Assembly: GCF_947489565.1 (NCBI RefSeq)
Contig: NZ_CANLEA010000030.1
Span: 1-60,348 of the forward strand
Reading direction: 5' to 3'
DNA: 60,348 nt
Source of the DNA: an uncultured Kordia sp.
GTDB taxonomy: Bacteria; Bacteroidota; Bacteroidia; Flavobacteriales; Flavobacteriaceae
Below the pieces are notes generated by a model. It made no database searches, had not been told where the DNA came from, and saw only the letters and a program-made list of their open reading frames with translations. The translations under genes were made by a program, and so were the position numbers. Within the stretch, counting starts at the first letter, position 1. Each line of letters begins with the position of its first letter. Positions 3,686 through 56,629 of this stretch are shown one piece after another.

Positions 3686-3871
3686 ATGAAAAAACGAAAT
3701 CTTAAAAATTTGAAATTGAATAAGAGGTCAATTTCAGGTTTGGACAATTCACAAGTAAAAGGAGGAATTCCAGGACTTACATGGATTTGTACTGTTAGTT
3801 TATCAAGATTGGTTTGTGATGATCCTTCAGGCGTTCCAGGAACGTATCAATCAGTTTGTGATTGGTGCTAG
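3686..3871 (+). CDS. GG-leader precursor peptide 1 (class I lanthipeptide-like)
   Basis: This is a 61-residue peptide. Residues 1-27 are a basic leader (MKKRNLKNLKLNKRSIS... ending KGG) with the L-x-L-x-K-x2-I-S-x-L pattern shared by nine genes in this window. The 34-residue core has four Cys (three of them in the last 21 residues, two near the C-terminus) with Thr and Ser between them. Cleavage is expected after the double glycine. The family resembles Bacteroidota class I lanthipeptide precursors, but no dehydratase, cyclase or exporter gene is nearby. It stands alone between the kinase gene and dapD and is followed by a strong terminator. The product structure is unknown. Confidence 0.75.
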   Translation: MKKRNLKNLKLNKRSISGLDNSQVKGGIPGLTWICTVSLSRLVCDDPSGVPGTYQSVCDWC

Positions 3872-3927
3872 TCATCACATAGTTTCTTTGATATGATTAC
3901 GTTTAAAATTCAATATTCTTTAAACGT

Positions 3928-3990
3928 CAACTTCGAGTAGATTTGCAAAGCAAGTTTGTATCGAGAAATACTATGAAACGTCATTGCGAA
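3928..3990. repeat. Diverged copy of the CGTCACTTCGAGTG-type repeat
   Basis: CGTCAACTTCGAGT, then TGTATCGAGAAATACTATG and CGTCATTGCGAA, reproduce the order of blocks seen at 102-165. It lies between precursor 1 and its terminator hairpin. Confidence 0.5.
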
Positions 3991-3996
3991 AGTTTC

Positions 3997-4033
3997 AAAA
4001 AAAGCGAACTAAAAAATTTTAGTTCGCTTTTTA
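3997..4033 (+). terminator. Rho-independent terminator after precursor 1
   Basis: The arms AGCGAACTAAAA and TTTTAGTTCGCT are perfectly complementary and are followed by a T run. It closes the single-gene precursor transcript. Confidence 0.85.
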
Positions 4034-4146
4034 TATTTTATTATGTAACAAGTCTATACTTTGACTTCGCTCAGCATACTTTGATCAAAAAGTCTAAAAG
4101 CAAAGCGCATCTAAGTTAGTCTAAGAGCAGCGCAAGTCTAACAAGT

Positions 4147-4962
4147 CTAAACAGCTACATCATGCTCACGCAAAGCATCGTTTAAAGAAGTCTTTTTATT
4201 AGTACTTTCTTTACGTTTTCCAATAATTAAAGCACAAGGAACTTGGTAATCTCCAGCAGGGAATTTTTTCGTATAACTACCTGGAATCACAACCGATCTT
4301 GCCGGAACGCGTCCTTTCATTTCCAAAGGTTCGTCTCCCGTGATATCTATAATCTTGGTTGAAGCAGTCAGTACTACATTCGCACCTAAAACAGCTTCTG
4401 TTTCTACACGAACACCTTCCACAACAATACATCTCGATCCTATAAACGCATTATCTTCAATAATAACAGGAGCTGCTTGCAATGGTTCTAACACGCCACC
4501 AATTCCAACACCGCCAGACAAGTGTACATTCTTCCCAATTTGTGCACAACTTCCAACAGTTGCCCAAGTATCAACCATGGTTCCTTCATCAACATAGGCG
4601 CCAATATTTACATAACTTGGCATCATAATTACACCTTTAGAAACATACGCTCCGTGACGTGCAATAGCATGTGGAACTACACGAATTCCTTTTTCCTTAT
4701 AACCGCGTTTCAAAGGAATTTTGTCGTGAAATTCAAAAATCCCAGCTTCCAAAGTTTCCATTTTCTGAATAGGGAAATACAACACTACCGCTTTTTTTAC
4801 CCATTCATTCACTTGCCAACCATCTGCAGTTGGTTCTGCAACGCGCAATTCTCCAACATCCAATAAATCAATTACCTTACGAATAACAGCTTGTGTGTCT
4901 TCATTCTTTAATAATTCTCGGTTATCCCAAGCATTTTCTATAGCTTCTTTTAATGCGATCAT
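4147..4962 (-). CDS. dapD: 2,3,4,5-tetrahydropyridine-2,6-dicarboxylate N-succinyltransferase
   Basis: The 271-residue length matches DapD. The middle of the protein is a left-handed parallel beta-helix of hexapeptide repeats (GAYVSKGVIMMPSYVNIGAY and GVGIGGVLEP segments), with the family's typical GTMVDTWATVGSCAQIG stretch. The enzyme succinylates tetrahydrodipicolinate in the succinylase branch of lysine and diaminopimelate synthesis in the cytoplasm. The pathway partner dapB lies at 29769 in this window. The gene is monocistronic, with a long upstream region (4963-5380) and a precursor peptide gene on each side. Confidence 0.95.
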   Translation of the reverse strand: MIALKEAIENAWDNRELLKNEDTQAVIRKVIDLLDVGELRVAEPTADGWQVNEWVKKAVVLYFPIQKMETLEAGIFEFHDKIPLKRGYKEKGIRVVPHAIARHGAYVSKGVIMMPSYVNIGAYVDEGTMVDTWATVGSCAQIGKNVHLSGGVGIGGVLEPLQAAPVIIEDNAFIGSRCIVVEGVRVETEAVLGANVVLTASTKIIDITGDEPLEMKGRVPARSVVIPGSYTKKFPAGDYQVPCALIIGKRKESTNKKTSLNDALREHDVAV

Positions 4963-5380
4963 GTTTTTATAAATTTTGTAGCTTTTGTATAATTTTTTGG
5001 GTACGTTAACAGGCTATCCACTATATCTTTTTGGTTCATTTCGATAATACTCAATGCCCCAAAAAGGATGTCGTTTCTATCCTTCGCACAGTTTCAAAGC
5101 GTAAATATAAAATCTTCCGAGAGAATATGTGCTTAAAATTTACAGATGTAACAGATTCTATTGATTTTAGAAGAAATTTGTATTCAAAAGGCGATTTTGT
5201 ATTTCTATTTTTTAAGATTTTGATTTTCAGTTAGATATGTTTTTTTGTCAGTTAAAATGTCAGTTTTGACAGTTGCCATCTAAGTAAATTGGTTGTGTAA
5301 TTTTTAAGATGATAAAATCAATTATGAGCATTGTTTTAAACTTTATATAATTTGAAAGTTTAACCATTAAATTTTATATC
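4963..5380. other. 418-bp intergenic region between dapD and precursor 2
   Basis: The region is AT-rich and without a convincing gene; a 67-codon plus-strand frame at 5031-5234 has no recognisable features. On the minus strand, TACGCTTTG near 5093-5101 is one base off the TAnnTTTG spacing and could be the dapD promoter, which would give a leader of roughly 130 nt. Upstream of precursor 2, the segment TTAAATTTTATA just before the ATG is shared with precursor 1. Confidence 0.4.
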
Positions 5381-5575
5381 ATGAAGAAAAAAAGTATTAA
5401 AAACCTGAACTTAAACAAAAAATCTATTTCAAAACTAAATAGTGATGAAATAAAAGGAGGAACTATTGTTCCTACAGGTGTTTGTTGGTCAATTATATCA
5501 TGTCCATCTCTTACGTGTACAGAAGGAGTTGTATGTGATATCATCAGAACAGAAGATCCTTTAGACATTCGTTAG
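5381..5575 (+). CDS. GG-leader precursor peptide 2 (class I lanthipeptide-like)
   Basis: This is a 64-residue peptide. Residues 1-27 are the family leader ending IKGG. The 37-residue core has four Cys in a Ser/Thr context (GVCWSIISCPSLTCTEGVVC). Its core is closely related to precursor 3 at 8595: both contain C-P-[ST]-x-T-C-T-E-G-x-V-C-D. The conserved Cys/Thr spacing suggests that ring positions are under selection. The gene stands alone, between dapD and an SDR gene. Class I lanthipeptide is the best family guess; no modification enzyme is encoded here. Confidence 0.78.
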   Translation: MKKKSIKNLNLNKKSISKLNSDEIKGGTIVPTGVCWSIISCPSLTCTEGVVCDIIRTEDPLDIR

Positions 5576-5590
5576 GAAACTTAAAGACAT

Positions 5591-5686
5591 AAAGAAAAGA
5601 GACTGGTTAAAAAGTTAAAATTTCGTCAAACGGAATCAAGTTCAGAACGACGTTTTAAATAACTTTCTAGATGGTCTCTTTCTTTA
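5591..5686 (+). terminator. Possible long-armed terminator between precursor 2 and the SDR gene
   Basis: The arms AAAGAAAAGAGAC (5591-5603) and GTCTCTTTCTTT (5674-5685) pair over about 12 bp with one bulge. Inner AAAGTTA/TAACTTT arms could extend the stem. The loop is long, so this is weaker than the other terminators. Its convergent position would let it serve both strands. Confidence 0.35.
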
Positions 5687-5708
5687 TATCAATTACCTAC
5701 TTAAAAGC

Positions 5709-6488
5709 TTATGAAACGGTTTGCATCTTTCTAACGCGTTTCAAAATTGCTTTTTTAGACATAAACGGCAACATTTTCATCATAAACTTTTGAGAAGATG
5801 TCAATCCAGAAATAACATCCAAATCACCTTTCAACATTGCGTTATATCCATCTTCGGCAACGCTTCTGGCACTAGCCGTTTTATCAAAAAGATTTGTTTT
5901 ATCCATTCCTGAAACGGAGCCAAATTCGGTGGCAGTAGCGCCAGGCATTAAATTGGTTACGGAAACATTGGTATCGTGTAATTCTTCCGCAATTGCATTG
6001 CTAAAAAAGGTTACATAAGCTTTTGTAGCATAATATACCGCTTGCAACGGACCAGGTAAGAAACTCGCCGTAGAAGATACATTCAGAATTTTTCCTTCAT
6101 TGCGCGCTACAAAATCTTGTAGAAAATGGTGTGACAATGCTGTTAGTGCGCTAATATTCAGTTGAATCATATTCAAGTCGGTTTGCAAATCACGTTGATC
6201 AAAACGTCCCAAACCACCAAAACCTGCATTGTTAATAAGGTAATCAACTTTTATATTGGCAGCTGTTACTTCATTATAAATTTCTTGCGGTGCTTTTGGA
6301 TCTGTTAAATCTTTTGCAATTACGGTAACATGTATCTTATGCGCTGTTTCAAGTTCAGTTTTCAGTGCTTTTAGTTTGTCTTCACTTCGTGCAATAATGA
6401 CTAAATCGCCACCTTTCTCTGCATGAATCTTTGCAAATTCTTTTCCTATTCCGCTACTTGCGCCAGTGATTAATGCTATTTTTTTCAT
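5709..6488 (-). CDS. Short-chain dehydrogenase/reductase (SDR)
   Basis: The 259-residue classical SDR has the NAD(P)-binding T-G-A-S-S-G-I-G at residues 8-15, N-N-A-G at 86-89, the catalytic Ser within NVSSTASF at about 139, and Y152-x3-K156. A basic residue (R34) after strand 2 suggests NADP(H). It most resembles the DltE/YqjQ-like subgroup; the substrate is unknown. It lies downstream of a TetR regulator gene on the same strand. A TGAG-type palindrome at 6506-6521 sits just upstream of its ATG and resembles one upstream of the regulator, so the regulator probably controls this gene. Confidence 0.88.
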   Translation of the reverse strand: MKKIALITGASSGIGKEFAKIHAEKGGDLVIIARSEDKLKALKTELETAHKIHVTVIAKDLTDPKAPQEIYNEVTAANIKVDYLINNAGFGGLGRFDQRDLQTDLNMIQLNISALTALSHHFLQDFVARNEGKILNVSSTASFLPGPLQAVYYATKAYVTFFSNAIAEELHDTNVSVTNLMPGATATEFGSVSGMDKTNLFDKTASARSVAEDGYNAMLKGDLDVISGLTSSQKFMMKMLPFMSKKAILKRVRKMQTVS

Positions 6489-6505
6489 TCTTTCGTAGTT
6501 TTATT

Positions 6506-6521
6506 AGTGAGTACTTACTTT
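6506..6521. promoter_or_regulatory. Candidate TetR operator upstream of the SDR gene
   Basis: TGAGTACTTACT is an imperfect palindrome lying 18-35 bases upstream of the SDR ATG. It shares the TGAG half-site and spacing with the palindrome upstream of the TetR gene. Assignment is by similarity and position only. Confidence 0.4.
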
Positions 6522-6540
6522 TTTTATAATTAAATTTTTT

Positions 6541-7062
6541 TTAGAGTTTGTATTTGAGTAATAAAAATGATTTGTACGCCTCTTGTTGTTTTAAATTTCC
6601 TTTTAAAATTTCAGACGAAATACTTTCTATAATCTGATTCAATAAAACAGCTTCTAAGTTTGGATTTTCGTAGTGTAACGCTTCAAAAGCAGTAGTCAGT
6701 TTGTCAATTAACGGCTGCATTTTTTGCGGATTGTTATACGCGACTTCCCATTTCAGTTTAAACTGCAAACGCCAAAAATCAAATTCACTTTCCTTGACAC
6801 TAAACGGAAGTTCAATTGCTTTTTTCAATACAGTTGTTGGATCTGTTTCAACAATAATTGGCATGATCACTGCTGCAATTCGTGATTCAGCATCTTTAAT
6901 AATTGCGTTCAATAGTCCTTGCTTATTCGTAAAATGTCTGAATATCAATCCTTCAGAAACACCAGCTTTTTTCCCAATCTTACTTGTAGAAGTAGCATTA
7001 TATCCTTCATTAGAGAATAATTCGAGTGCAGCTTGCAGTATTTTTTCTTGTTTATCAGTCAT
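6541..7062 (-). CDS. TetR/AcrR family transcriptional regulator
   Basis: The 173-residue protein has an N-terminal TetR helix-turn-helix: KILQAALELFSNEGYNATST, then KIGKKAGVSEGLIFRHFTNK, the usual strongly conserved region, followed by a variable ligand-binding helical domain. It is likely a repressor of itself and of the SDR gene 52 bp downstream. A GTG start at 7083 would place the palindrome at 7073-7086 at the very start of the coding region; the ATG at 7062 leaves the palindrome in the 5' region and fits the family start. The ligand is unknown. Confidence 0.88.
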   Translation of the reverse strand: MTDKQEKILQAALELFSNEGYNATSTSKIGKKAGVSEGLIFRHFTNKQGLLNAIIKDAESRIAAVIMPIIVETDPTTVLKKAIELPFSVKESEFDFWRLQFKLKWEVAYNNPQKMQPLIDKLTTAFEALHYENPNLEAVLLNQIIESISSEILKGNLKQQEAYKSFLLLKYKL

Positions 7063-7072
7063 TCTGTAATAG

Positions 7073-7086
7073 TGAGCAATCACTCA
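7073..7086. promoter_or_regulatory. Candidate TetR operator upstream of its own gene
   Basis: TGAGCAATCACTCA matches its reverse complement at 10 of 14 positions with perfect TGAG/CTCA ends, 11 bases upstream of the chosen ATG. This is typical in size and place for an autoregulatory TetR operator. Confidence 0.45.
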
Positions 7087-7139
7087 CAAAAGTAGATTAA
7101 GTTTTTGCAACAGCCAAATTTTGGATTGTTAAACTTAGT

Positions 7140-8306
7140 TTAATTCTTTCTAGGATAGGTTCGTCCATTCAAAAACTTACCAATAAACGTGCTACGAACA
7201 CAGTAATGATACGTAACAAAACAGATAATGGTAGTTGCAGTGGTAACCAATAAAAATTTTGAAATTCCATCAAGTGGTACGTTCCATAAGAGAATTGGAA
7301 ATAGAGCTGTCAGTGGCAAATGAATTAAATATACCCAATATGAAGCATCAGAAATATAGCGCATTCGCTTAGAATGTTTGCTTCCGTAGCGAATAAACAA
7401 TCCTGTAATTCCAAAAATAAAAAGCCAAACGGTTAAGGAGCTTAATGTGATTAAGATTGGAGAATTGCTATTTGGTTTTAAATCTAAATCTGCGAATTCA
7501 ATGAGAATACCTTGTGTCATCACTAGTAAAATAGCTGTAATTACAGTGAGCCAATCATATTTTATAAGTGTGTGTAAATGTTGTTTGGAAGTATACAATA
7601 TCCATCCGATAAGGTAGAATGATGTATAATATAAGAACGTGGCAACATCTGGTGTAAGCGAAGTAGAAGACGCAACCATTGGTGTTTTTAAAAAGGTCAA
7701 AATCACAAATGTCATTCCTGAAAAGGCAAGAATGCGTGCTAGCGGTCTTTGGAAAATCCAACTTCCAATAGTTTTAATCTTTTGTGATAGCTTTGGCGTT
7801 TTCTGGGCCATAAACGCTAGGATGCAAGCAAATGCTGTTGCGTAGATCAAATAATACAAAAACCATAAGTGCGACGTACTTTTTGGAATGTAAAAGTTGA
7901 ATTCTGAAAAAGGCGCTAAGGTATTTGTCAAGGCGTGTTCATTGCCTTGAAATGTTTGGCTGGCATAATCAAATGAAAACTGTACGATAGGAGCGAGGAT
8001 GATCAAAAAAACAATAAACGGAAATACAATTCTAGCGATTCTATTTTTGATCATTTTTTTGGGACTTCGCTCATAAAAAAGCATAGCGCCAAAAAAACCT
8101 GCAATTAGGAAAAAGATGGGCATGCGAAACGAATGAATCATCAACACTAAAAAGTCGGTGGCAATATTGGTAGAAGCTGTATCTTTTATCACCCAAACAT
8201 TTCCATGATTCGTTACATTATAGGTCAATGCCGAGTGCAATACCAAACCAAGCATCATCATGATGGCGCGTAAAGAATCGAAAGAATGTATGCGTTGTGT
8301 TTTCAA
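7140..8306 (-). CDS. Acyltransferase 3 family membrane protein
   Basis: The 388-residue integral membrane protein has about ten hydrophobic segments and the family's N-terminal signature: R-x4-D-S-L-R-A at residues 5-14 and the catalytic-type His24 (LVLHSALT). Proteins of this family (OafA, OpgC, NodX-like) transfer acetyl or succinyl groups to sugars or lipids across the inner membrane; the acceptor here is unknown. The start is TTG at 8306: an in-frame stop lies just upstream, and the first ATG would remove part of the R-x4-D motif. The gene appears monocistronic, ending about 55 bp upstream of the regulator region. Confidence 0.85.
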   Translation of the reverse strand: MKTQRIHSFDSLRAIMMMLGLVLHSALTYNVTNHGNVWVIKDTASTNIATDFLVLMIHSFRMPIFFLIAGFFGAMLFYERSPKKMIKNRIARIVFPFIVFLIILAPIVQFSFDYASQTFQGNEHALTNTLAPFSEFNFYIPKSTSHLWFLYYLIYATAFACILAFMAQKTPKLSQKIKTIGSWIFQRPLARILAFSGMTFVILTFLKTPMVASSTSLTPDVATFLYYTSFYLIGWILYTSKQHLHTLIKYDWLTVITAILLVMTQGILIEFADLDLKPNSNSPILITLSSLTVWLFIFGITGLFIRYGSKHSKRMRYISDASYWVYLIHLPLTALFPILLWNVPLDGISKFLLVTTATTIICFVTYHYCVRSTFIGKFLNGRTYPRKN

Positions 8307-8594
8307 AGAAGCTTTTTAATGTTTTATAAATGTGCAGAATATTTGTTATCTGCAAAAATCGCGAAAAATAGGTAAAGAATTTGTGAGTTTAGGTCAGAAA
8401 TTTTTGAAATATACAAAATGTATTTAATTCAAATGATTTCAATCAATTTTGTGATTATTTCTTGCTAGGTTTCTAATGATTTAACGGATTGAAAAATAGT
8501 ATTTTACAGAGAATAATGGCGTGAATGAAAGTGTTATTGTCTTATTTATAAATCTGTTAATTCCTACTTTAGAAGTAACTTAAAACTATTAGTC

Positions 8595-8798
8595 ATGAAA
8601 AAAAAGAATCTTAAAAATTTAAATCTAAAAAAACAATCAATTTCTAACTTAGATAGCGGTGCTATAAAAGGCGGAACAGGACCTTCTATATTAACTTGTT
8701 TATCTTGCTGGTTTTGCCCAACTGTTACTTGTACCGAAGGTGACGTTTGTGATGTTTTAATTTCACTTGTAGATGATCAACTTTGTGTTGATATGTAG
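8595..8798 (+). CDS. GG-leader precursor peptide 3 (class I lanthipeptide-like)
   Basis: This is a 67-residue peptide. The leader is residues 1-27, with L-N-L-K-K-Q-S-I-S-N-L and IKGG at the end. The 40-residue core has six Cys, including TCLSCWFCPTVTCTEGDVCD. The stretch from CP to VCD aligns with precursor 2 without gaps, so the two are paralogues whose middle ring region is conserved while the ends differ. It lies alone between the acyltransferase and ruvX, in front of a clear terminator. Confidence 0.78.
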   Translation: MKKKNLKNLNLKKQSISNLDSGAIKGGTGPSILTCLSCWFCPTVTCTEGDVCDVLISLVDDQLCVDM

Positions 8799-8816
8799 TC
8801 AAAGATAGCTACTATT

Positions 8817-8853: not shown

Positions 8854-8978
8854 ATAACTTTTCTAAAGACCATCAATTTGATGTGTCAATTCTTCAATTT
8901 TTTCATGCTTTACAATTCAGTTTTCCATCCTTAGAGCAATAATTCTACTAATTTTTATACACATTGAAATATAAAGCT

Positions 8979-33761: not shown

Positions 33762-33968
33762 TCAAAATCCACAGAATACAACATCAGTATTACTAAGTCG
33801 TGCCGAAATTTGACAATTGGGTTCTGTTGGACAGAGTTGTGATTTACAGATACTTTCCAGTGTATACGTGCAACCAAACGTTTTGATTCTACCTCCAATT
33901 TGTGTGTTGTTAAAATTAGAAATACGTTCTTTTTTTAGTCGTAATGAATTCAGATTTCTTTTCTTCAT
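33762..33968 (-). CDS. GG-leader precursor peptide 4 (class I lanthipeptide-like)
   Basis: This is a 68-residue peptide. The 26-residue leader has L-R-L-K-K-E-R-I-S-N-F and ends QIGG. The 42-residue core has five Cys, each close to Thr or Ser (FGCTYTLESICKSQLCPTEP...), and ends VVFCGF. ATG 33968 is chosen over an upstream frame because it aligns the leader with the family. The 5' region ATTTTAAAACCA before the ATG is shared with precursor 5. The core ending F-C-G is also shared with precursor 5, so the two are a local paralogous pair. Confidence 0.75.
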   Translation of the reverse strand: MKKRNLNSLRLKKERISNFNNTQIGGRIKTFGCTYTLESICKSQLCPTEPNCQISARLSNTDVVFCGF

Positions 33969-34267: not shown

Positions 34268-34483
34268 TTAAATTATTATTCCACAGAATCTAGGTTCTGT
34301 TACACAAAGTGCTTGCGTGACTGTACAATCTTGATAAGCATCAGAATGGCAAATTTTTGTATTGCATTCCAGTTTCATAGTATGATAACATTTTTTACTA
34401 AAACCACCGACAGCCTGTATGCTCTTTAAATTTGAAATTGATTTCTTGTTAAGTGCTAATAATCTAGAGTTTCTTTTTTTCAT
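34268..34483 (-). CDS. GG-leader precursor peptide 5 (class I lanthipeptide-like)
   Basis: This is a 71-residue peptide. The 27-residue leader has L-A-L-N-K-K-S-I-S-N-L and ends AVGG. The 44-residue core has six Cys (C-Y-H-T..., LEC, KIC, QDC, ALC and RFC) with several Thr and Ser; it ends C-G-I-I-I. It is transcribed in the same direction as precursor 4 but ~300 bp upstream of it and has its own terminator, so the two are separate transcripts. It interrupts an otherwise conserved housekeeping neighbourhood. Confidence 0.75.
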   Translation of the reverse strand: MKKRNSRLLALNKKSISNLKSIQAVGGFSKKCYHTMKLECNTKICHSDAYQDCTVTQALCVTEPRFCGIII

Positions 34484-41881: not shown

Positions 41882-42121
41882 ATGAAGAAAAAAGATTTTA
41901 AACAAAAATTACAGTTACACAAAAAAGTAATTTCAAATTTAGATGCAAGCTTGCTTCAAGGAGGAACGGATATTCCAATTCCTGTGACAACCATTATCAA
42001 AACTATTAAAACGATTAAAACAAATTACAGAGCTTGTACCATTATAGCAACTTGTCATTGTAGTATGCATTGTCCAACGACCACAGAGGTAGATACAAAT
42101 TGCAATACAGAACAGTGTTAA
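41882..42121 (+). CDS. GG-leader precursor peptide 6 (class I lanthipeptide-like)
   Basis: This is a 79-residue peptide. The 28-residue leader (L-Q-L-H-K-K-V-I-S-N-L ending LLQGG) is one residue longer than in precursors 1-3. The 51-residue core starts with a Thr/Ile/Lys-rich section (KTIKTIKTNYR) and continues with C-T-I-I-A-T-C-H-C-S-M-H-C-P, four of six Cys close together with Thr and Ser. It shares R/D-A-C-T-I-I-A-T-C-x-C-S with precursor 7, 37 bp downstream. Confidence 0.8.
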   Translation: MKKKDFKQKLQLHKKVISNLDASLLQGGTDIPIPVTTIIKTIKTIKTNYRACTIIATCHCSMHCPTTTEVDTNCNTEQC

Positions 42122-42158: not shown

Positions 42159-42377
42159 ATGAAAAAAAAGGAATTCAACCCAAGATTAAAATTAGGTAAA
42201 AAGATAATTTCCAGTTTGGAAACATTCAATCTACAAGGAGGAACAGAAGTGCCAAGTGAAGTGCCAACAGAACCTATTAAAACAAGAAAAACCAAACGAA
42301 CAGCACATGATGCATGTACCATTATTGCTACGTGTTATTGCTCATTGACTTGCCCAGAAAAGTGCGATGAGTGCTAA
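42159..42377 (+). CDS. GG-leader precursor peptide 7 (class I lanthipeptide-like)
   Basis: This is a 72-residue peptide. The 28-residue leader (L-K-L-G-K-K-I-I-S-S-L, ending LQGG) pairs with that of precursor 6. The 44-residue core has a Pro/Thr/Lys-rich start (TEVPSEVPTEPIKTRKTKR), then A-C-T-I-I-A-T-C-Y-C-S-L-T-C-P-E-K-C-D-E-C: six Cys in the last 20 residues. It probably shares an mRNA with precursor 6 and the terminator at 42422. The pair lies between the fur-like gene and relA. Confidence 0.8.
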   Translation: MKKKEFNPRLKLGKKIISSLETFNLQGGTEVPSEVPTEPIKTRKTKRTAHDACTIIATCYCSLTCPEKCDEC

Positions 42378-49006: not shown

Positions 49007-51982
49007 TTAAAATTCAACAGTATCACAGTGATGATGTACTTTATCTTTCTTCTTAGCAGGTTGCGTTTTCATGCCTTTATTTTTCTCTAAAAGCATCATA
49101 TTCATCAACTCATTACGTTGGTTTTGAATATCGCGACGTAATTGCTGATCACGTTCTAAATCAAAATAAACAGTACCTTCAATCATGGTAGTTTGCGCTT
49201 TTGCGTAAATTGACATTGGATGATCTGTCCATAAAACTAAATCTGCTTGTTTCCCAGTTTTTACACTTCCAACTTTATCGTCGATATGTAATAATTTAGC
49301 AGGATTTAAAGTAACAAACTTCCAAGCATCTTCTTCAGAAACACCACCATATTTAACCGCTTTTGCAGCTTCTTGGTTCAATCTACGAGACATTTCGCCA
49401 TCATCAGAATTAAACGCTACCACAACACCTTGACTGTGCATGATAGCTCCGTTATATGGAATGGCATCATTTACTTCATATTTGTAGGCCCACCAATCAG
49501 AGAAGGTAGAACCTCCAACTCCGTGTTCTTTCATCTTGTCAGCCACTTTATAACCTTCTAAAATATGTGTGAATGTATTGATATTGAAACCAAACTTATC
49601 AGCCACTTTCATCAACATATTGATTTCACTTTGTACATATGAGTGACATGACACAAAACGTTTTTTATTGAGGATTTCTAAAATTGTTTCCATCTCAATA
49701 TCATAACGATACTTTCCGCTTTTTTTCTTGGCTTCGTATTCTTTAGCACGTTGAAAATAATCTGTAAAAACTTGCTCAACTCCCATACGTGTTTGTGGGA
49801 AACGTGTAGTTTCAGTATCGCCCCAATTACTTTGCTTTACATTTTCACCTAAGGCAAACTTGATAAATCCGTCAGCACCTTTAAAAATCATATCATCTGC
49901 GGATCGTCCCCATTTTAAACTCAAAATAGCAGAACGACCACCAATTGGATTTGCTGAACCGTGCAATAGTTGAATCGTAGTAACTCCACCAGCTAAGTTT
50001 CTATAAATATCTACATCTTCTGGATTTACCACATCTTCCATGTTCACTTCGGCTGTAGAATTATGTCCAGCTTCGTTGATCGCAAAAGCAGCAATATGTG
50101 AATGCTCATCAATCACTCCAGAAGTCAAATGTTTTCCGGTAGCATCAATAACTCTTGCACTACGATCGCTGAGGTTTTTCCCAATACGGGCAATTTTACC
50201 ATCTTTTACAAGAACATCTGTATTTTGAAGAATTCCATCACTTTCATTGGTCCAAACCGTTGCATTTTTAAATAATACCGTTTCTTGTTGTGGAACGCTA
50301 GCCAAACCATAAGCTCCATTTGGATAAGAAATTGGGAGCACTTTTGGCGCTTCCATTTTTGAGTCTTTCTTTCCACCTTTTTTCTCGCCTGCTTTTTTAA
50401 CTTCTTTTTGAGTAGCATTGAATGACGATTCAGAACCGTTTGCTAATAACGCTTTTCCAGAGAAATAAGTAGCATTTCTAACAGGAGCTGTCAAACGAAT
50501 AAATTCTGTTTTTGTAGTATCAGGTGTTGTAAATTGTAGTTGCAACCAATCGTTTTTAAAAGAAATCTTTGAACCTAACTTCATCGAATCTTTCATTACG
50601 GTTGCTTTTAGTTTCTCTGGAGAACCTGCAATGTTGACATCGTACATGTTTCCAGCAACATTAAATGTATATTTTCCGCGAATGTCTTTATGTGCTTTGT
50701 CTTTAAATACATTCTGATTTCCTTGAACCCAGTTTTCATAGATCACTGTTTTCTTCTCAAAAATATCTCCAGATGTAATTAAAAAGTTTGCTTGACGTCC
50801 GTTTTGAAGTGTTCCAACTTTGTCTTCTTGCTTTAAAATACGTGCTGGAATCGTAGTTAATGCTTCCAATGCTTTGGTTTTATCCAAACCGTATTTAATA
50901 GCTTTTTGAATATTTGCTTTGAATTCGTTTCCAGATTTTACATTATGCATCGTAAAACTAAAGGTAATTCCTTTGTCTGCCAACGCTTTTGGGTTTGATG
51001 GTGCTTGATTCCAATGTTTCATCGCTTCCAATTCTACAACACCAGCCGCATACGGATCTGATACATCATAGGCTTTCGGGAAGTTGATAGGAATGATAAA
51101 CGAAGCATTCGTCGCTTTCATAGCGTTGATGTTTTCATACTCAGTTCCATCGCCAACCATTACATATTGAATTCCAAATTCGTCACCAATAGCATCAGTT
51201 TTGATACTGTTGTGTTTGTTTCCAGAATGAAAGATTTGTACTAAATTTTTATTAGCTAATAAAGCTTCCAAAGCCAAATCTGTTCGTTCGGCATTTCCTT
51301 TCGAGTACCAATCTGCATCGTGGTACATTTGACGAATTAGTGCCATACTTCCCATTAATGAAGTTGGATACGATTGTCTGGAAGCATTGCTTTTTTGATA
51401 CGATAAATATTGTGCAGAACGATTGTCTAAGATACGAGTACTATTATCTGCTTTGGTGTTGAGTGCGACTAACATTCCGTTTCCGCGAACAATTCCATCT
51501 TGTAAATGTGTGTTTACAGTTCCAAAACCAGCTTTTAATAAACTAGTCGCTTTCTTATTATCGAACGCAAATTTTTCAATAGGATTGATGTCTGGTCGAA
51601 TATGATCATTCCAGTAATATCCTTTTCGTTCTGCATCATACTGCGGACTTCTTCTTCCACCAAAACTTCTTTTAGGTTTTGGTAATCCAAAGTCAGAATA
51701 AGGATCAATAAACGAAGGATATACACTTTTTCCTGTTAAGTCTACAACTGTAGCATCTTTAGGAATAGAAATGTTTGTTCCGGTTTGAACAACTTTTCCA
51801 TCTTGTATGATGAGTGTTCCATTTTCGATCACTTGTGTGGGCGTGACATAAATTTTTGCATTGGTGAATGCTGTTATGGTGTGACTTTCTGTTTTGACGC
51901 CATCGTTTTTGGGAAAGTATTCCTGCGCAACGGCAGAAAGGCTACAGAAAAGAAGTAACAGCAGCAAATACGATTTTCTCAT
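49007..51982 (-). CDS. Two-module amidohydrolase
   Basis: The 991-residue secreted protein has a signal peptide to about residue 19. Module 1 (about 35-420) is amidohydrolase-like but reads SFIDPYSDFGL where the H-x-H should be. A linker domain follows with a Lys-rich stretch near 520-540. Module 2 (about 570-960) is intact: GVIDEHSHIA with His627 and His629, SCHSYVQ, FTHILEGY, and Asp in FNSDDGEMSRR. So one degenerate and one active module are fused. The substrate is unknown, perhaps a periplasmic peptide or amide. Confidence 0.88.
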   Translation of the reverse strand: MRKSYLLLLLLFCSLSAVAQEYFPKNDGVKTESHTITAFTNAKIYVTPTQVIENGTLIIQDGKVVQTGTNISIPKDATVVDLTGKSVYPSFIDPYSDFGLPKPKRSFGGRRSPQYDAERKGYYWNDHIRPDINPIEKFAFDNKKATSLLKAGFGTVNTHLQDGIVRGNGMLVALNTKADNSTRILDNRSAQYLSYQKSNASRQSYPTSLMGSMALIRQMYHDADWYSKGNAERTDLALEALLANKNLVQIFHSGNKHNSIKTDAIGDEFGIQYVMVGDGTEYENINAMKATNASFIIPINFPKAYDVSDPYAAGVVELEAMKHWNQAPSNPKALADKGITFSFTMHNVKSGNEFKANIQKAIKYGLDKTKALEALTTIPARILKQEDKVGTLQNGRQANFLITSGDIFEKKTVIYENWVQGNQNVFKDKAHKDIRGKYTFNVAGNMYDVNIAGSPEKLKATVMKDSMKLGSKISFKNDWLQLQFTTPDTTKTEFIRLTAPVRNATYFSGKALLANGSESSFNATQKEVKKAGEKKGGKKDSKMEAPKVLPISYPNGAYGLASVPQQETVLFKNATVWTNESDGILQNTDVLVKDGKIARIGKNLSDRSARVIDATGKHLTSGVIDEHSHIAAFAINEAGHNSTAEVNMEDVVNPEDVDIYRNLAGGVTTIQLLHGSANPIGGRSAILSLKWGRSADDMIFKGADGFIKFALGENVKQSNWGDTETTRFPQTRMGVEQVFTDYFQRAKEYEAKKKSGKYRYDIEMETILEILNKKRFVSCHSYVQSEINMLMKVADKFGFNINTFTHILEGYKVADKMKEHGVGGSTFSDWWAYKYEVNDAIPYNGAIMHSQGVVVAFNSDDGEMSRRLNQEAAKAVKYGGVSEEDAWKFVTLNPAKLLHIDDKVGSVKTGKQADLVLWTDHPMSIYAKAQTTMIEGTVYFDLERDQQLRRDIQNQRNELMNMMLLEKNKGMKTQPAKKKDKVHHHCDTVEF

Positions 51983-52129
51983 TGCTTTACTTTAGGTTTG
52001 ATTGATTAGTTAAAAACTTAAAGATAAGGCTAGAATATACTTTGTATCGTGTATTAAGATTTTTTTAACGTTTTTGTCAGCATTTGTACGGGTTTCCCGT
52101 ATTGATCTTGAAGCTCCTTGTAAGATTTA

Positions 52130-52921
52130 TTATTGATGAATTGGAATCGCTGTATGTTGAATCCATTTTTGAATGAGTTGTCGGTTGGTAGTAATTTCAG
52201 CAAAAACAAAAATATCACTCTGAAAACAGGGAGAAGTTGCCGCTTTTTCAATCATCACTTTATCGTCGTAATAGCTTGAATGTAAAAAGTAAAGTTCTTT
52301 ATTTTTAATTAAAACATAGCCAACATGATTGCTCAATCCCACAAAATACAATCCGTCAGTATATACTTTATTGAGTTTAGCTTTGAGTTGATCTTGTGAA
52401 ATATTTCGATAGATTTTCAATTCGTTTTTGGGTTGAAGCGTAATGGCTTCATTCAAACCGCCTTGCTGTGCCATTTTGAAACGATTGAGTCGAAAGTTTA
52501 AATGTCTAAGTGTAGTTGAAACGAAATAACCGCAAGCAATTTCTCCATCGTTAGGAATGTCGGTATGTCCATTAAAATCCCAAGGTGTGCCATACCAATG
52601 CGGTACAATTTCATTTAGAAGCTTATGATACAAATAATTACCAGCAGAGTCGATGGCTTTTTCTTTGTTTTGTTGCAACATTCTTGCGAAATAAGCACGA
52701 TCACTCTTTACGGTTTGTTTGATGGAATTGTAATTTCCTTTGGGTTTAAAATTGATACCTAATGCAATAGAATCGAGAGTGTTTTTAGGAGTTGTTTCTG
52801 CTACTTCCAAAGTCTCAGTAACTTTCTTTTTTGACGTTTCAGTCGTCGCTGCTGTTTTTTTAGGAGCCTTTGTGCAAGAAACTCCAAGGCAAAGTAATAT
52901 TAAGTATAGAAATCGGTTCAT
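52130..52921 (-). CDS. Lipoprotein with a possible Cys/His peptidase site
   Basis: The 263-residue protein has a lipobox (LCLGVSC, Cys16) and a Thr/Lys-rich linker to ~residue 48. The C-terminal domain has DGEIACGYFVSTTLRH with Cys130 and GLSNHVGYVLI with His199, an order and context like NlpC/P60-type cysteine peptidases. The assignment is by motif only. The same segment carries a different 65-codon frame (52054-52251) that was rejected. Confidence 0.65.
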   Translation of the reverse strand: MNRFLYLILLCLGVSCTKAPKKTAATTETSKKKVTETLEVAETTPKNTLDSIALGINFKPKGNYNSIKQTVKSDRAYFARMLQQNKEKAIDSAGNYLYHKLLNEIVPHWYGTPWDFNGHTDIPNDGEIACGYFVSTTLRHLNFRLNRFKMAQQGGLNEAITLQPKNELKIYRNISQDQLKAKLNKVYTDGLYFVGLSNHVGYVLIKNKELYFLHSSYYDDKVMIEKAATSPCFQSDIFVFAEITTNRQLIQKWIQHTAIPIHQ

Positions 52922-53058
52922 CGTACTAAAATTAACGCTTTTCTTTCTGTTTTCGTGTCTTAGGTTAAGAAATTACGAATCAAACTTTACGATAAGCTTA
53001 TCCAGTTTACAATTTGGGAGCATAAACGTAACAAGAGATTAATTTTTAACAAATATAC

Positions 53059-53175
53059 ATGTCACATATGCTAAATACTTTTGTTATAACAGGGAAGGTT
53101 ATAACTAATGACCTGAAATATGAACGTAACAATGGAGTAGAAGGGTATATATCGAGATATACTAAACCCATTTAG
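53059..53175 (+). CDS. Putative 38-residue small protein
   Basis: The reading frame encodes a peptide starting MSHMLNTFVITGKV and ending SRYTKPI, with mixed, protein-like composition. It may also begin at the second Met (53068). The segment FVITGKV...LKYERN is reminiscent of the first strands of an OB-fold/SSB protein (weak). Its stop lies 11 bases before a strong plus-strand terminator that no other plus-strand gene explains, which supports a real transcript. It could instead be a decayed remnant or a non-coding RNA. Confidence 0.35.
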   Translation: MSHMLNTFVITGKVITNDLKYERNNGVEGYISRYTKPI

Positions 53176-53185
53176 TTGTGTGTTG

Positions 53186-53225
53186 AAAATGCCATTATTG
53201 GGGGATAATGGCATTTTTTTTATCA
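53186..53225 (+). terminator. Plus-strand terminator overlapping the DUF3810 stop codon
   Basis: AAAATGCCATTAT and ATAATGGCATTTT form a 13-bp stem followed by eight T in the plus direction. It also covers the last codons of the DUF3810 gene (minus strand). The T run is only on the plus side, so it ends a plus-strand transcript. Confidence 0.8.
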
Positions 53226-54271
53226 TAATTTACCAGTAAAGAAACCACATAACTGTAGCTTAAAATTCCTTTCGATTGATTGTTTGCTTTTAAAAACTGA
53301 TCAAAGGTAAATTTGAATAATGGTTTTAATGGATTTTTGTGTGAATTCCAAAACTCACGGACTTCATCATAATTTTTTTGAATTCCAGGATTTAAAGTTG
53401 CTTTTAAGCGTTCGTATTCTTCTTTATCTCTGTTGTGTACTTCTTTCAAACAATGCCAAGTCATAAAGTTGTAGGCGCCGTATTGAAAATAAATATCATC
53501 ATTGTATAAAGCAGTCATACAGCCAATAAAATTAGCTTCGTTTTCCGCTGAATATCCAATCTGATGTGCTTTTTCGTGACTTGCGGTTACTGGAAATTTA
53601 TACACTGGAATTTTATAATTAATTTGTGCTTCGTTGGTAAACGGATTGATGTAACCGCTGAATCCCATAATCGTTAAAAATCCACTATAAATAGAAGTCT
53701 TTAAACTCTGATTGGTAAATATAAACTTAGGTTCTTTTGCGCTAAAATTTTCGTATCCGTTCATCGTTTTCTCAAAAATTTCATTTGTAGTATACGGAAC
53801 TTCCACTTTTACAGTGTCGTTTTGTGTAATTTGAAACTGAACAGCATTTGCTTTCGCGATGACTCTTTCGGTAAAACTTACAAGCTCTTCTGTAGTATAC
53901 TTTCTATCGAGTTCCAATGATTTGTACAAAGGCAATCGATAATAATTCATTCCCCACAAAAGGTGAAAGGCAAAGTACACGACGGTAATTGTAATGTAAA
54001 TATCTATCAAAATACGCTTGTATTCTTTGCGAACCAAACGGTAGTTTTTATAAATATATCGAATGATTAAAATACCAGCGATCGTATAAAAAATGTCGCC
54101 GATTGAAAACGGAATCCATCCAAAAACAATTCTGAAAAGTTTTGATATATACGGATACAATCCGTTACTGTAATAGGTTTCAACAAATTCTGGATAATTG
54201 CCAAGTATCTTAATAAGAAAGAATTGAAGGGGAAAAGATAAGGCAATTAAAATTTTTGTTCTCTTGGTCAT
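53195..54271 (-). CDS. DUF3810 family membrane protein (putative metallopeptidase)
   Basis: The 358-residue protein has about three N-terminal membrane segments (residues ~8-24, 60-75 and 88-108), then a soluble domain with H232-E-K-A-H236 and E243/E245 nearby, the zinc-dependent gluzincin pattern H-E-x2-H. It probably acts at the periplasmic face. ATG 54271 is preferred to TTG 54277. Substrate and role are unknown. Confidence 0.87.
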   Translation of the reverse strand: MTKRTKILIALSFPLQFFLIKILGNYPEFVETYYSNGLYPYISKLFRIVFGWIPFSIGDIFYTIAGILIIRYIYKNYRLVRKEYKRILIDIYITITVVYFAFHLLWGMNYYRLPLYKSLELDRKYTTEELVSFTERVIAKANAVQFQITQNDTVKVEVPYTTNEIFEKTMNGYENFSAKEPKFIFTNQSLKTSIYSGFLTIMGFSGYINPFTNEAQINYKIPVYKFPVTASHEKAHQIGYSAENEANFIGCMTALYNDDIYFQYGAYNFMTWHCLKEVHNRDKEEYERLKATLNPGIQKNYDEVREFWNSHKNPLKPLFKFTFDQFLKANNQSKGILSYSYVVSLLVNYDKKNAIIPQ

Positions 54272-54425
54272 AAGCAATACATTTGAACTCCATTCGGGAA
54301 CATGATATGTAGCTAATGTAAAAAAACTAAATCACTATTGCTACGTTGAGGTGATATTTTTGTCATGATTTTGACAAATTTGAAAGGTATTTCATAAAAA
54401 ACAATCGATTTTATTGTCAAAAAAT

Positions 54426-54433
54426 TAACTTTG
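54426..54433 (+). promoter_or_regulatory. -7 promoter element of pepD
   Basis: TAACTTTG fits TAnnTTTG, 32 bases before the ATG at 54466. It overlaps the GTG at 54433, which argues against the longer start. Confidence 0.5.
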
Positions 54434-54465
54434 TGGACAATTATTCAATTCATAAAAAAAATAGA

Positions 54466-55929
54466 ATGAGTCAAGAAATAAGAACTTTAGAACCAAATGC
54501 ACTTTGGAATAAATTTGCAGATTTAAACGCGGTCCCAAGACCTTCTAAAAAAGAAGAACGTGTGATTGCTTTTATGAAGAAATTTGGAGAAGATTTAGGA
54601 CTAGAAACTTTTGTAGACGAAGTTGGAAATGTGATCGTTAAAAAACCAGCAACTGCAGGAATGGAAGATCGCAAAGCCATTGTAATGCAATCGCATTTAG
54701 ATATGGTACACCAAAAAAACTCGGATACAGTATTTGACTTTGATACACAAGGAATTGAAATGTTTATTGATGGCGATTGGGTAAAAGCAAAAGGAACGAC
54801 TTTAGGAGCCGATAACGGACTTGGAGTTGCGACCATCATGGCAATTTTGGAAAGTAATGATATTGCACATCCTGCAATTGAAGCACTGTTTACAATCGAT
54901 GAAGAAACCGGAATGACAGGTGCGATGGGATTGAAAGGCGGATTGCTAGAAGGAGAAATTTTATTAAACCTAGATACAGAAGAAGATGATGAAATCGGAA
55001 TTGGTTGTGCAGGAGGAATTGATGTTACCGCAACACGCTCGTATGTAGTAGAAGAAACACCTGAAAATGTAGTAGCCTACACGATCGAAATAAGTGGATT
55101 GCAAGGAGGACATAGCGGAATGGACATTCACAAAGGTTTTGGAAACGCCAACGTGTTAATGAACCGCTTGTTATTTGATGGTTTTGAAAACTTCGGATTG
55201 CGCATTGCAGAAATTAATGGAGGAAGTTTACGAAATGCCATTCCAAGAGAAAGTGTTTCAACCGTGGTCATTGATAAAGTACATCAAGAAGCTTTTGAAT
55301 TTGAAATGCAAACGCAAATCAACACGATCAAAAAAGAATTTGCAAGCATAGAAGAAGAGTTAGAAATTGAGTGCACTGCAACTGAAACACCTTCTGGAGT
55401 TATGGAATTAGGTGTGCAAGAAGGATTGACACGTTCTTTATATGCAGCACACAATGGTGTATTCCGTATGAGTCCAGATATTGAAGATTTAGTAGAAACC
55501 TCAAACAATATTGCGCGCGTTATTGTAAAAGATGGTGAGATTAAAGTTGGTTGTTTGACACGTTCTTCTGTAGAAAGTGGAAAAATGGACTTAGCCACAA
55601 AACTAAGAGCAACTTTTGAACTTTCTGGTTGCGAAGTAGAATTTTCAGGTTCGTATCCAGGATGGGCACCAAACATGAATGCATCTATTTTGCCAGTTAT
55701 GGTCAATTTATATAAAGAATTAAATAACGGAGAAGAACCACATGTAGCCGCTTGTCATGCAGGATTGGAATGTGGAATTTTAGGAACAAACTATCCAGAG
55801 ATGGAAATGATTAGTTTTGGACCTAACATTCGTGGAGCACATTCACCAGACGAACGTGCAAGCATTTCTTCGTCACAAAAATATTGGAACTATGTGTTGG
55901 AGATTTTAAAGAATATTCCAAAAAAATAA
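54466..55929 (+). CDS. pepD: Aminoacyl-histidine dipeptidase (PepD, M20)
   Basis: The 487-residue protein has the di-zinc site SHLDMVHQK (His77, Asp79), GADNGLGVA (Asp116), IDEETGMTGA (Glu146, Glu147), and the M20C dimer-domain layout. It hydrolyses Xaa-His and other dipeptides in the cytoplasm. ATG 54466 is chosen because a promoter element overlaps the upstream GTG. It ends in a terminator with the GCCGTTTC stem. Confidence 0.94.
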   Translation: MSQEIRTLEPNALWNKFADLNAVPRPSKKEERVIAFMKKFGEDLGLETFVDEVGNVIVKKPATAGMEDRKAIVMQSHLDMVHQKNSDTVFDFDTQGIEMFIDGDWVKAKGTTLGADNGLGVATIMAILESNDIAHPAIEALFTIDEETGMTGAMGLKGGLLEGEILLNLDTEEDDEIGIGCAGGIDVTATRSYVVEETPENVVAYTIEISGLQGGHSGMDIHKGFGNANVLMNRLLFDGFENFGLRIAEINGGSLRNAIPRESVSTVVIDKVHQEAFEFEMQTQINTIKKEFASIEEELEIECTATETPSGVMELGVQEGLTRSLYAAHNGVFRMSPDIEDLVETSNNIARVIVKDGEIKVGCLTRSSVESGKMDLATKLRATFELSGCEVEFSGSYPGWAPNMNASILPVMVNLYKELNNGEEPHVAACHAGLECGILGTNYPEMEMISFGPNIRGAHSPDERASISSSQKYWNYVLEILKNIPKK

Positions 55930-55950
55930 TTCATACAAAAACATGTACAA

Positions 55951-55986
55951 AGGCCGTTTCAAAACTATTTGAAACGGCTTTTTGTT
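55951..55986 (+). terminator. Terminator after pepD
   Basis: An 11-bp GCCGTTTCAAA/TTTGAAACGGC stem with a four-base loop, then T run. The stem has the same sequence as that after mazG. Confidence 0.9.
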
Positions 55987-56015
55987 TTTAACATCATTCA
56001 AGCAATGATATTTTG

Positions 56016-56237
56016 CTAGTTCTTATTCCAATCGTCTGTTGTACAAGGAAGTACACGAGAAGTGTCTTCAATCGGACGCGGATCTTGTGGAACTGGTTGA
56101 CAAGGCAATTGACTTTGACAACCAGAAGCAAAGGTGTTTACACTCATTGTTGTTGGAGCGCCACCATGTAATAGATTAGCTCTTAAAGCAGAGATAGTTT
56201 GTTTTTGTAATTGTAGTGTTTTGATCTGTTTTTTCAT
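56016..56237 (-). CDS. GG-leader precursor peptide 8 (class I lanthipeptide-like)
   Basis: This is a 73-residue peptide. The 26-residue leader (L-Q-L-Q-K-Q-T-I-S-A-L, ending LLHGG) has the family pattern with Gln for several Lys. The 47-residue core has only three Cys, plus many Thr, Ser, Gln and Pro (QLPCQPVPQDP). The ATG at 56237 aligns best; one at 56261 would add eight residues. It forms a same-strand neighbourhood with precursor 9, 149 bp upstream of its start. Confidence 0.7.
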   Translation of the reverse strand: MKKQIKTLQLQKQTISALRANLLHGGAPTTMSVNTFASGCQSQLPCQPVPQDPRPIEDTSRVLPCTTDDWNKN

Positions 56238-56334
56238 CTGAAATATAATTTTTTGTTTCATTGCAAATATCTTTCAGGTCACGAATTCTCAAAACAGGAA
56301 AATAAATAAAATAAGACCCGTGTTTTTCCCTGTG

Positions 56335-56367
56335 AAAAAGCCCCTTTTCAATGAAAAGAGGCTTTAA
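56335..56367 (-). terminator. Terminator after precursor 9
   Basis: AAAGCCTCTTTTC...GAAAAGGGGCTTT stem on the minus strand with a T run beyond, between precursors 9 and 8. Confidence 0.75.
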
Positions 56368-56386
56368 TCAACATGTGAACATCTGT

Positions 56387-56629
56387 TTAGCAAGTTATAA
56401 ATGTAGGTTGATTTGTTGTTTGTGTGTGTGTTGTTGGACAGGGTCCGCATCCTGAAGGTAGTGTTGGTAAAGGATCGCAGGCAATTAATAAGGATTTACA
56501 GTTTATCTGTATTGTTAAGCAATTCGTGTGAACTAATGTAAAGCGGATAAGTCCTCCGTGTAATTGCTCATCAGAAAGTTTCGCGATTTTCTGTTTGCGA
56601 AGTTTTAAAGAAAAATGTTGTTTTTTCAT
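56387..56629 (-). CDS. GG-leader precursor peptide 9 (class I lanthipeptide-like)
   Basis: This is an 80-residue peptide, the longest of the family. The 26-residue leader (L-K-L-R-K-Q-K-I-A-K-L, ending LHGG) is in the same subgroup as precursor 8. The 54-residue core has six Cys and a Pro/Thr-rich tail (CGPCPTTHTQTTNQPT). ATG 56629 is preferred over an upstream frame that would add nine residues. It has its own terminator. Confidence 0.7.
   Translation of the reverse strand: MKKQHFSLKLRKQKIAKLSDEQLHGGLIRFTLVHTNCLTIQINCKSLLIACDPLPTLPSGCGPCPTTHTQTTNQPTFITC

What the first reader, a model, noticed from the sequence alone, without database searches (positions are those of the whole stretch)
3686..56629. 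Nine dispersed GG-leader precursor peptides with no maturation genes in the window
Seen: nine small genes (3686, 5381, 8595, 33968-, 34483-, 41882, 42159, 56237-, 56629-) share a basic 26-28-residue leader (MKK, L-x-L-x-K-x2-I-[SA]-x-[LF], GG end) and have variable cores of 34-54 residues with 3-6 Cys and many Thr/Ser. Known: such leaders with Cys/Ser/Thr cores are typical of Bacteroidota class I lanthipeptide precursors, normally next to LanB/LanC and an exporter. Inferred: here the precursors are scattered among housekeeping genes and may be processed in trans by enzymes encoded elsewhere, as in cyanobacterial prochlorosins.
Basis: partly seen in the sequence, partly recalled or inferred. 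Interest (0 to 1): 0.85.

Follow-up and report, generated by a model that had tools for sequence, protein, structure and literature searches.

The report
Over 260 scattered lanthipeptide-type precursor genes
The nine small genes are real and belong to a family of more than 260 exported-peptide precursors scattered over one marine Kordia genome, which has a single lanthipeptide dehydratase that may mature many of them from a distance.

Summary
All nine genes exist as described. The window is one contig of a Kordia genome. The nine belong to a genome-wide family: at least 264 GG-leader precursors in 145 loci on 31 contigs; no shuffled frame passed the same cut-off. Leaders are about 49% identical; cores are near random identity (0.288 vs 0.274 shuffled) but rich in Cys, Pro and Thr, with Ser/Thr preferred five residues before Cys. 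No LanB, LanC or C39 hit lies in the window, but the genome has one LanB (split in two ORFs), LanC genes and C39 exporters elsewhere. All 11 Kordia genomes tested have one LanB and at least 108 leader hits. In Lacinutrix and Leptobacterium the homologous LanB cluster itself holds a precursor with this leader type. Best reading: a class I counterpart of prochlorosins, largely matured in trans; chemistry unproven. Kordia's richness in such precursors is in print (PMC11118758). Not found in print: 45 membrane TPR-AraC regulators, 35 of them followed by a GG-leader gene, a candidate peptide-sensing system.

The parts
3686..3871 (+). GG-leader precursor, 61 aa, 4 core Cys; ortholog with conserved core at the same place in 1 of 10 other Kordia genomes
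5381..5575 (+). GG-leader precursor, 64 aa, 4 core Cys; NF038153 24.0 bits (over cut-off); orthologs or close paralogs at the same locus in 4 of 10 other Kordia genomes
8595..8798 (+). GG-leader precursor, 67 aa, 6 core Cys; core resembles that of 5381
33762..33968 (-). GG-leader precursor, 68 aa, 5 core Cys; NF038153 21.1 bits (just below cut-off)
34268..34483 (-). GG-leader precursor, 71 aa, 6 core Cys
41882..42121 (+). GG-leader precursor, 79 aa, 6 core Cys; NF038153 22.9 bits (over cut-off)
42159..42377 (+). GG-leader precursor, 72 aa, 6 core Cys; tandem neighbour of 41882 with a similar core (by eye)
56016..56237 (-). GG-leader precursor, 73 aa, 3 core Cys
56387..56629 (-). GG-leader precursor, 80 aa, 6 core Cys; NF038153 22.6 bits (over cut-off)

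Best explanation
The nine genes are members of a dispersed family of at least 264 precursors in this genome. Shown: they are real genes with a conserved start region, a shared class I-type leader that mostly ends in GG, and a diverse Cys/Thr/Pro-rich core; the two families tested are under purifying selection. Inferred: the leader recruits the single split LanB and its LanC, encoded on another contig; LanB activates and eliminates Ser/Thr, LanC closes thioether rings to downstream Cys, and the C39 peptidase-exporter beside LanB cuts after GG and exports the product. Gene birth and loss at fixed chromosomal places yields a changing library of cyclic peptides, like the prochlorosins of marine picocyanobacteria but with class I enzymes. 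A minority are probably served by other enzymes (class V-like set, LanC plus nucleotidyltransferase modules), and another subset, paired with membrane TPR-AraC regulators, may be signals.
For: One LanB N-part (E 4.7e-150, profile 1-649) and one LanB C-part in 6.42 Mb. The N-part aligns along NisB and 9g04; the C-part shares the RYxDPxHHxRxRF and ERYG stretches with 9g04 (their role in elimination is recalled). Its LanC keeps WCYG and CHG. Lacinutrix: LanC, LanB, LanB C-part, then a precursor with the dispersed leader type; Leptobacterium: the core family conserved beside Kordia LanB carries a dispersed-type leader. Ser/Thr at Cys-5 in 30.7% vs 19.8% expected (z 7.4) in 176 non-redundant cores, while Cys+5 shows no excess; 75 of 176 have an odd number of Cys. 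255 of 258 cores have a Ser/Thr at least two residues before a Cys. pN below pS in cores.
Against: No chemistry was seen. Only 2 of 264 precursors lie within 10 kb of LanB, and 12 of 264 within 10 kb of any of seven LanBC, LanC, class V-like or nucleotidyltransferase loci. The precursors beside LanB in the eight Kordia loci have their own conserved core and a somewhat different leader, so LanB may be dedicated to them. The same leader occurs beside LanB-free modules. Two of three LanB-positive non-Kordia relatives (G020, G028) have no leader hit. Only three of nine pass NF038153's cut-off. The Ser/Thr-Cys pattern also has a Cys+2 and a Cys-Pro component that lanthionine rings do not require.
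Confidence: 0.58

Rival explanations
1. The dispersed peptides are GG-exported, disulfide-bonded or unmodified Cys-rich peptides; LanB serves only its own conserved neighbours.
For: LanB-adjacent precursors have a conserved dedicated core in all eight Kordia loci. Dispersed genes mostly lack enzyme neighbours (12 of 264 within 10 kb). Cores are very rich in Cys (11.6%); even Cys numbers are somewhat commoner than odd (99 vs 75 of 176).
Against: 75 of 176 non-redundant cores have an odd Cys number, and Ser/Thr enrichment at five residues is only on the upstream side of Cys. Dispersed-type leaders occur inside the LanB cluster of Lacinutrix and Leptobacterium.
Confidence: 0.22
2. The family is a mixture served by several enzyme sets with one common leader and exporter: LanBC, a class V-like set (APH kinase, HopA1, LanC), and LanC plus nucleotidyltransferase modules.
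For: Class V-like set with its own precursor on C16. Four of five family nucleotidyltransferases lie within 1.5 kb of a precursor, three of them beside LanC-like genes. Two of the four LanC-like genes in those modules keep the zinc motifs.
Against: These sets account for few precursors by neighbourhood (10 of 264 within 10 kb, LanBC not counted); the other two LanC-like genes in those modules have lost the zinc motifs.
Confidence: 0.15
3. The dispersed genes are decaying relics of duplicated clusters with no product.
For: Presence differs between species at one locus; the closest genome by DapD score (G004, 98%) has none of the three window genes at the DapD locus.
Against: pN below pS in leader and core in 22 of 22 pairs; conserved start region; no stop inside the matched leader in the 150 matches.
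Confidence: 0.03

Closest known systems
Prochlorosins and ProcM (Prochlorococcus, Synechococcus; precursor numbers recalled, about 30 to 80)
   Same: Many scattered precursors with conserved leader and diverse core, far fewer synthetases
   Different: Class II LanM and Nif11-type leaders there (Nif11 type and remoteness from LanM: PMC7268733 passage); here split class I LanB with separate LanC, L1a-type leader, more than 260 precursors
Bacteroidota class I lanthipeptide precursors with LxLxKx5L and GG (PMC7268733, passages read; NCBIfam NF038153)
   Same: Leader motif, GG end, C39 protease in the LanB cluster
   Different: In the passages read they are described from the clusters around the enzymes; here nearly all genes are remote
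RiPP-rich Kordia genomes of the TrRiPP survey (PMC11118758, section 7 and passages read)
   Same: Names Kordia as RiPP-rich, reports up to 176 RiPP precursors in a Bacteroidota genome (genus of that genome not stated), LanC with nucleotidyltransferase near Kordia precursors, and suggests distant or tolerant enzymes
   Different: In the parts read: no link to a single LanB across the genus, no leader/core evolution, no TPR-AraC regulator pairs
Kordia algicida LanB/LanC cluster (PMC3091789, passages read)
   Same: A K. algicida LanB and LanC cluster, presumably the same as the one found here
   Different: One LanA named; the dispersed family not mentioned in the passages read

Membership tests
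Class I lanthipeptide precursor (NF038153 lant_leader_L1a) | Leader model over curated cut-off | tested here: inconclusive
   3 of 9 over 22 bits, the other 6 between 11.2 and 21.1 bits with the same model as best or only hit. In the genome search 5 of 14 control genomes ring at E up to 10, none over the cut-off
Class I lanthipeptide precursor (NF038153 lant_leader_L1a) | Cognate LanB and LanC beside the gene | tested here: not met
   None in the window; LanB on contig C2. Met for precursors with this leader type in Lacinutrix and Leptobacterium
Class I lanthipeptide precursor (NF038153 lant_leader_L1a) | Core with Ser/Thr placed before Cys | tested here: met
   255 of 258 cores; z 7.4 at Cys-5 in non-redundant cores
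Class I lanthipeptide precursor (NF038153 lant_leader_L1a) | Dehydration and thioether rings in the product | not testable with these tools
   Needs mass spectrometry
Prochlorosin system | Many remote precursors with conserved leader and variable core beside very few synthetases | tested here: met
   Layout and sequence pattern only: 1 LanB, at least 264 precursors, leader 0.494 vs core 0.288 identity
Prochlorosin system | One synthetase shown to modify many of the precursors | not testable with these tools
   Needs biochemistry
Prochlorosin system | Class II LanM synthetase | tested here: not met
   The six LanC-domain matches lie in frames of 340-427 aa, too short for LanM; no LanM-specific model was run on the genome
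Prochlorosin system | Nif11-type leader | tested here: not met
   No Nif11 match in Pfam for 9 of 9
Radical-SAM modified GG peptide (TIGR04149) | Leader model match | tested here: not met
   1 of 9 at E 0.53, below cut-off
RRNPP-type peptide receptor (for the TPR-AraC regulators; definition recalled) | TPR peptide-binding part plus HTH in one soluble cytoplasmic protein | tested here: not met
   TPR and HTH in 20 of 20 scanned but a hydrophobic span lies between them in 12 of 12 checked. The TPR part has a weak sequence match to RapF (4i9c, E 4.5e-6) among many TPR proteins

The most novel reading that the evidence does not exclude
Kordia carries a genome-wide peptide language. More than 260 precursors are matured in trans by one class I LanBC, and about 45 membrane one-component regulators (outer TPR sensor, membrane span, inner AraC-type HTH) are mostly encoded about 100 bp upstream of their own GG-leader peptide, which they sense after export. 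This would be a peptide-autoinducer system of a kind I did not find described for Bacteroidota. It grew from the regulator-plus-precursor unit of an ancestral LanB cluster, while the enzyme stayed single.
Probability: 0.3. Interest if true: 0.87.

Novelty: new variant of a known kind. Interest (0 to 1): 0.66.

Why it matters
If LanBC acts on even a fraction of these cores, Kordia is a natural library of some 170 core families per genome (176) behind one tolerant class I dehydratase, far more varied substrates than class I enzymes are usually shown to take (general knowledge). It would show that the prochlorosin strategy arose a second time with different enzymes. The paired TPR-AraC regulators give a directly testable candidate for peptide signalling in Bacteroidota.

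Tried and rejected
rSAM maturation: 3 of 698 proteins within 3 kb of a precursor have a CxxxCxxC motif in the first 150 residues; no recurring family. This was a motif scan of fetched stretches, not a family search of the genome.

Known Bacteroidota promoter pattern upstream (pattern recalled): not enriched (TAnnTTTG in 44 of 264 vs 40 of 223 controls). The 8-mers TCGCTTTT (19 of 264) and GTTCGCTT (15 of 264; each 0 of 223 controls) are enriched, perhaps terminators of preceding genes; not followed.

A difference in Cys number between regulator-adjacent precursors and the rest: not significant (20 vs 244, p 0.13).

The big neighbour family first looked unspecific (53 of 108 near precursors); tighter clustering gave the TPR-AraC family, 30 of 35 entries near. 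One gene was entered twice there (L054 and L089), so 29 of 34 genes.

Enzyme neighbourhood: one search gave 10 of 264 within 10 kb, but its list held an exporter on C5 and left out the C4 nucleotidyltransferase; redid it with seven enzyme loci, giving 12 of 264 (also 12 with the C39 genes added).

Structure prediction of the regulator was tried four times; the queue was full each time. So there is no fold evidence.

Nucleotidyltransferase: no PDB sequence match up to E 0.01; the one NCBIfam hit is the MntA adenylyltransferase model, below its cut-off.

Papers: ten searches. The TPR-AraC and GG-peptide pairing was looked for only; the one related passage found is in PMC10352776 (TPR-domain genes in two Bacteroidales RiPP clusters; passages).
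Full report
Observation. Leaders are 26-28 residues, cores 34-54 residues with 3-6 Cys. NCBIfam's class I lanthipeptide leader NF038153 is the top or only NCBIfam model for nine of nine, over its cut-off for three of nine; Pfam gives only three weak chance-like hits (E 0.058-0.082). The 19 window neighbours scanned in Pfam include ordinary genes such as DapD, RuvX, peptide deformylase, Fur and RelA/SpoT, and no RiPP enzyme.

Genome-wide family. The window is contig C30 of a 6.42 Mb, 100-contig genome. It is a Kordia: its LanB is 88-97% identical to that of eight Kordia loci and at most 67% to others, and its genus-mate G009 has the contig length of K. algicida OT-1. The union was 224 places after leaving out 7 partial rows. 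I fetched stretches around them and 20 random 20-kb stretches elsewhere. An iterated profile found 264 distinct precursors (E below 0.01; 22 of them above 1e-4) in the selected stretches and none in the 400 kb of random stretches; no shuffled frame passed. 264 is a lower bound: several peptides downstream of regulators outside those stretches were found later, and one beside LanB (L042:16669) fell below the cut-off. They form 145 loci, 85 of them single genes, on 31 contigs.

Gene reality and evolution. Starts show an A-rich region (A at -12 in 91%, at -3 in 88%; 56% and 52% in 184 control ORFs). Leaders share 49% identity (232 precursors, 1,500 random pairs); cores 28.8%, against 27.4% for shuffled cores; 251 cores of at least 20 residues fall into 176 families, 142 of them single, the largest with 23. 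At the DapD locus of ten other Kordia genomes, the 3686 gene has a same-place ortholog in one (L197), the 5381 type occurs in four (L197, L198, L201 twice, L202), and G004, closest by DapD score, has none of the three window precursors; L195 has a precursor with a different core there. In the two families pN is below pS in leader and core (22 of 22 pairs). So the picture is birth and loss at fixed places with constraint on the products tested.

Core grammar. Cys is 11.6% of core residues, Pro and Thr are enriched, Lys depleted. In 176 non-redundant cores Ser/Thr is enriched at Cys-5 (30.7% vs 19.8%, z 7.4), also at -6 and -4 (z 3.5, 2.7), and at Cys+2 (z 7.9); Pro at Cys+1 (z 8.8). 75 have odd, 99 even and 2 no Cys. 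The upstream bias fits thioether ring formation; odd Cys numbers speak against pure disulfide frames. The Cys-Pro-[Ser/Thr] part is not explained by ring chemistry.

Enzymes. One LanB N-part and one C-part, adjacent, on C2, with LanC, a 572-aa TPR-AraC regulator, precursors, a HlyD-like protein (by eye) and a C39 exporter. LanB aligns over its length to NisB and other solved dehydratases. Five further LanC-like matches: one beside an APH-like kinase and a HopA1 protein (class V-like; the Lxm comparison is recalled), and four in three modules with a nucleotidyltransferase and a precursor. Zinc motifs (recalled: WCxG, CHG) are present in four of six LanC-like proteins and lost in two, both in nucleotidyltransferase modules. 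The LanC-nucleotidyltransferase neighbourhood in Kordia is already mentioned in PMC11118758. C39 domains: four, one of them weak and partial; one is in the LanB cluster, one in a locus with nitrile-hydratase-leader-like peptides (by eye). By neighbourhood, 12 of 264 precursors lie within 10 kb of seven enzyme loci: LanBC 2, class V-like 1, the three LanC modules 1 each, the two other nucleotidyltransferases 4 and 2.

Genus and phylum. Of 40 genomes (own plus 39 relatives), 14 have LanB (11 Kordia with one each, G020, G026 with one, G028 with two matches) and 12 have A1 hits at E up to 1e-3 (11 Kordia with 108 to 150, the cap; G026 with one). No LanB-negative genome has a hit, but the genus dominates the association. 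In a 395-genome phylum sample (own included, at most 21 scored per genome) 7 have a hit at E up to 1e-4; the six others have 1 to 13, and no other genome of this genus is among them.

Link between leader and LanB. In Lacinutrix (LanB 67% identical) the order is LanC, LanB, LanB C-part, precursor MKKKKLKHLKLNKKTISN..., then a HlyD-like and a C39-exporter-like ORF (by eye) on the other strand, with a second such precursor upstream. In Leptobacterium (63%) the core family that is conserved beside Kordia LanB carries a dispersed-type leader. This is the best sequence evidence that this LanB type accepts the leader.

Regulators. Neighbour clustering found a TPR-AraC family, 30 of 35 entries (29 of 34 genes, a few of them fragments) within 1.5 kb of a precursor, against 34% of 1,299 proteins. 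A genome-wide search with 20 of them (150 of 269 candidates scored) gave 52 matches, 45 of which span the TPR and HTH parts, two of these with a stop inside the match. 20 of 20 scanned have TPR_12 and HTH_18; a hydrophobic span lies between residues 358 and 429 in 12 of 12 checked. At a permissive profile threshold (E up to 1, 200 sequences), 35 of 45 have a same-strand GG-leader ORF starting within 400 nt after the match, mostly about 100 nt. By eye five more show one below the threshold and the LanB-cluster regulator has one at 88 nt; of the other four, one has a hit only at 497 nt, two have none and one had only 150 nt of sequence. Among 591 other ORFs of at least 300 aa at the same threshold, 39 have one within 400 nt of the stop (Fisher p 5e-28; in selected stretches only, 39 of 469, p 1e-24). 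In 22 Kordia loci (two from this genome) 16 have a profile hit and 6 a similar ORF by eye; in 8 loci of other genera 2 have a hit. The regulator lies within the fetched 8-kb flanks of LanB in all eight Kordia loci and in L185, L186, L188, L189, L191 and L193, not in L182, L183, L184, L187, L190 and L192; in G020, G026 and G028 the best regulator hit lies 1 to 3 kb from LanB by coordinates. I read this as an ancestral regulator-precursor unit of the LanB cluster that multiplied with the peptides. That the TPR part is outside the inner membrane, and that it senses the peptide, are inferences. None of the nine window genes has such a regulator in the window.

Verdict. Parts are in print: Kordia as RiPP-rich and the idea of distant enzymes (PMC11118758, section 7 and passages), the leader motif (PMC7268733, passages), a K. 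algicida LanB cluster (PMC3091789, passages). Kordia surveys PMC10734526 and PMC7477175 (passages only) do not mention the dispersed family in what I saw.

Noticed in passing
L042:14863-16581 and 44 further places in G000 (one search list): Family of 45 membrane TPR-AraC regulators, 35 with a GG-leader peptide gene just downstream by profile; candidate peptide sensing pairs.
   Followed up: partly
L045:10221-12551, L046:8801-12063, L047:9450-11496, L076:3975-5001: Nucleotidyltransferase (NTP_transf_2/Polbeta in the three tested) next to GG-leader precursors, three times with LanC-like genes and no LanB; a possible other way to activate Ser/Thr. LanC-nucleotidyltransferase pairs are mentioned for Kordia in PMC11118758.
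   Followed up: partly
L044:7182-10973: APH-like kinase, HopA1-family protein, LanC and precursor in a row: class V-like lanthipeptide module with the same leader type.
   Followed up: partly
L048:5337-18841: Two peptides resembling nitrile-hydratase-type leaders around a C39 exporter; looks like a proteusin-type locus (by eye).
   Followed up: no
L051:7724-8314: Tandem subfamily with MKTQKxKSLKLVKAS leaders and very short cores ending in C(W/H)AH, unlike the rest.
   Followed up: no
L060:6945-7469: Two tandem precursor copies with identical protein sequence and acidic, Cys-poor cores; recent duplication.
   Followed up: no
150 bp upstream of precursors: Enriched 8-mers TCGCTTTT (19 of 264) and GTTCGCTT (15 of 264), each 0 of 223 controls; perhaps a shared terminator or regulatory element.
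   Followed up: no
window:32308-32676: PF05635 protein (23S rRNA intervening sequence type) as a free-standing gene beside the WbqC-like gene.
   Followed up: no
G262:C1:2257066-2259821: A genome of the same family has 13 leader hits in one tandem array of under 3 kb.
   Followed up: no
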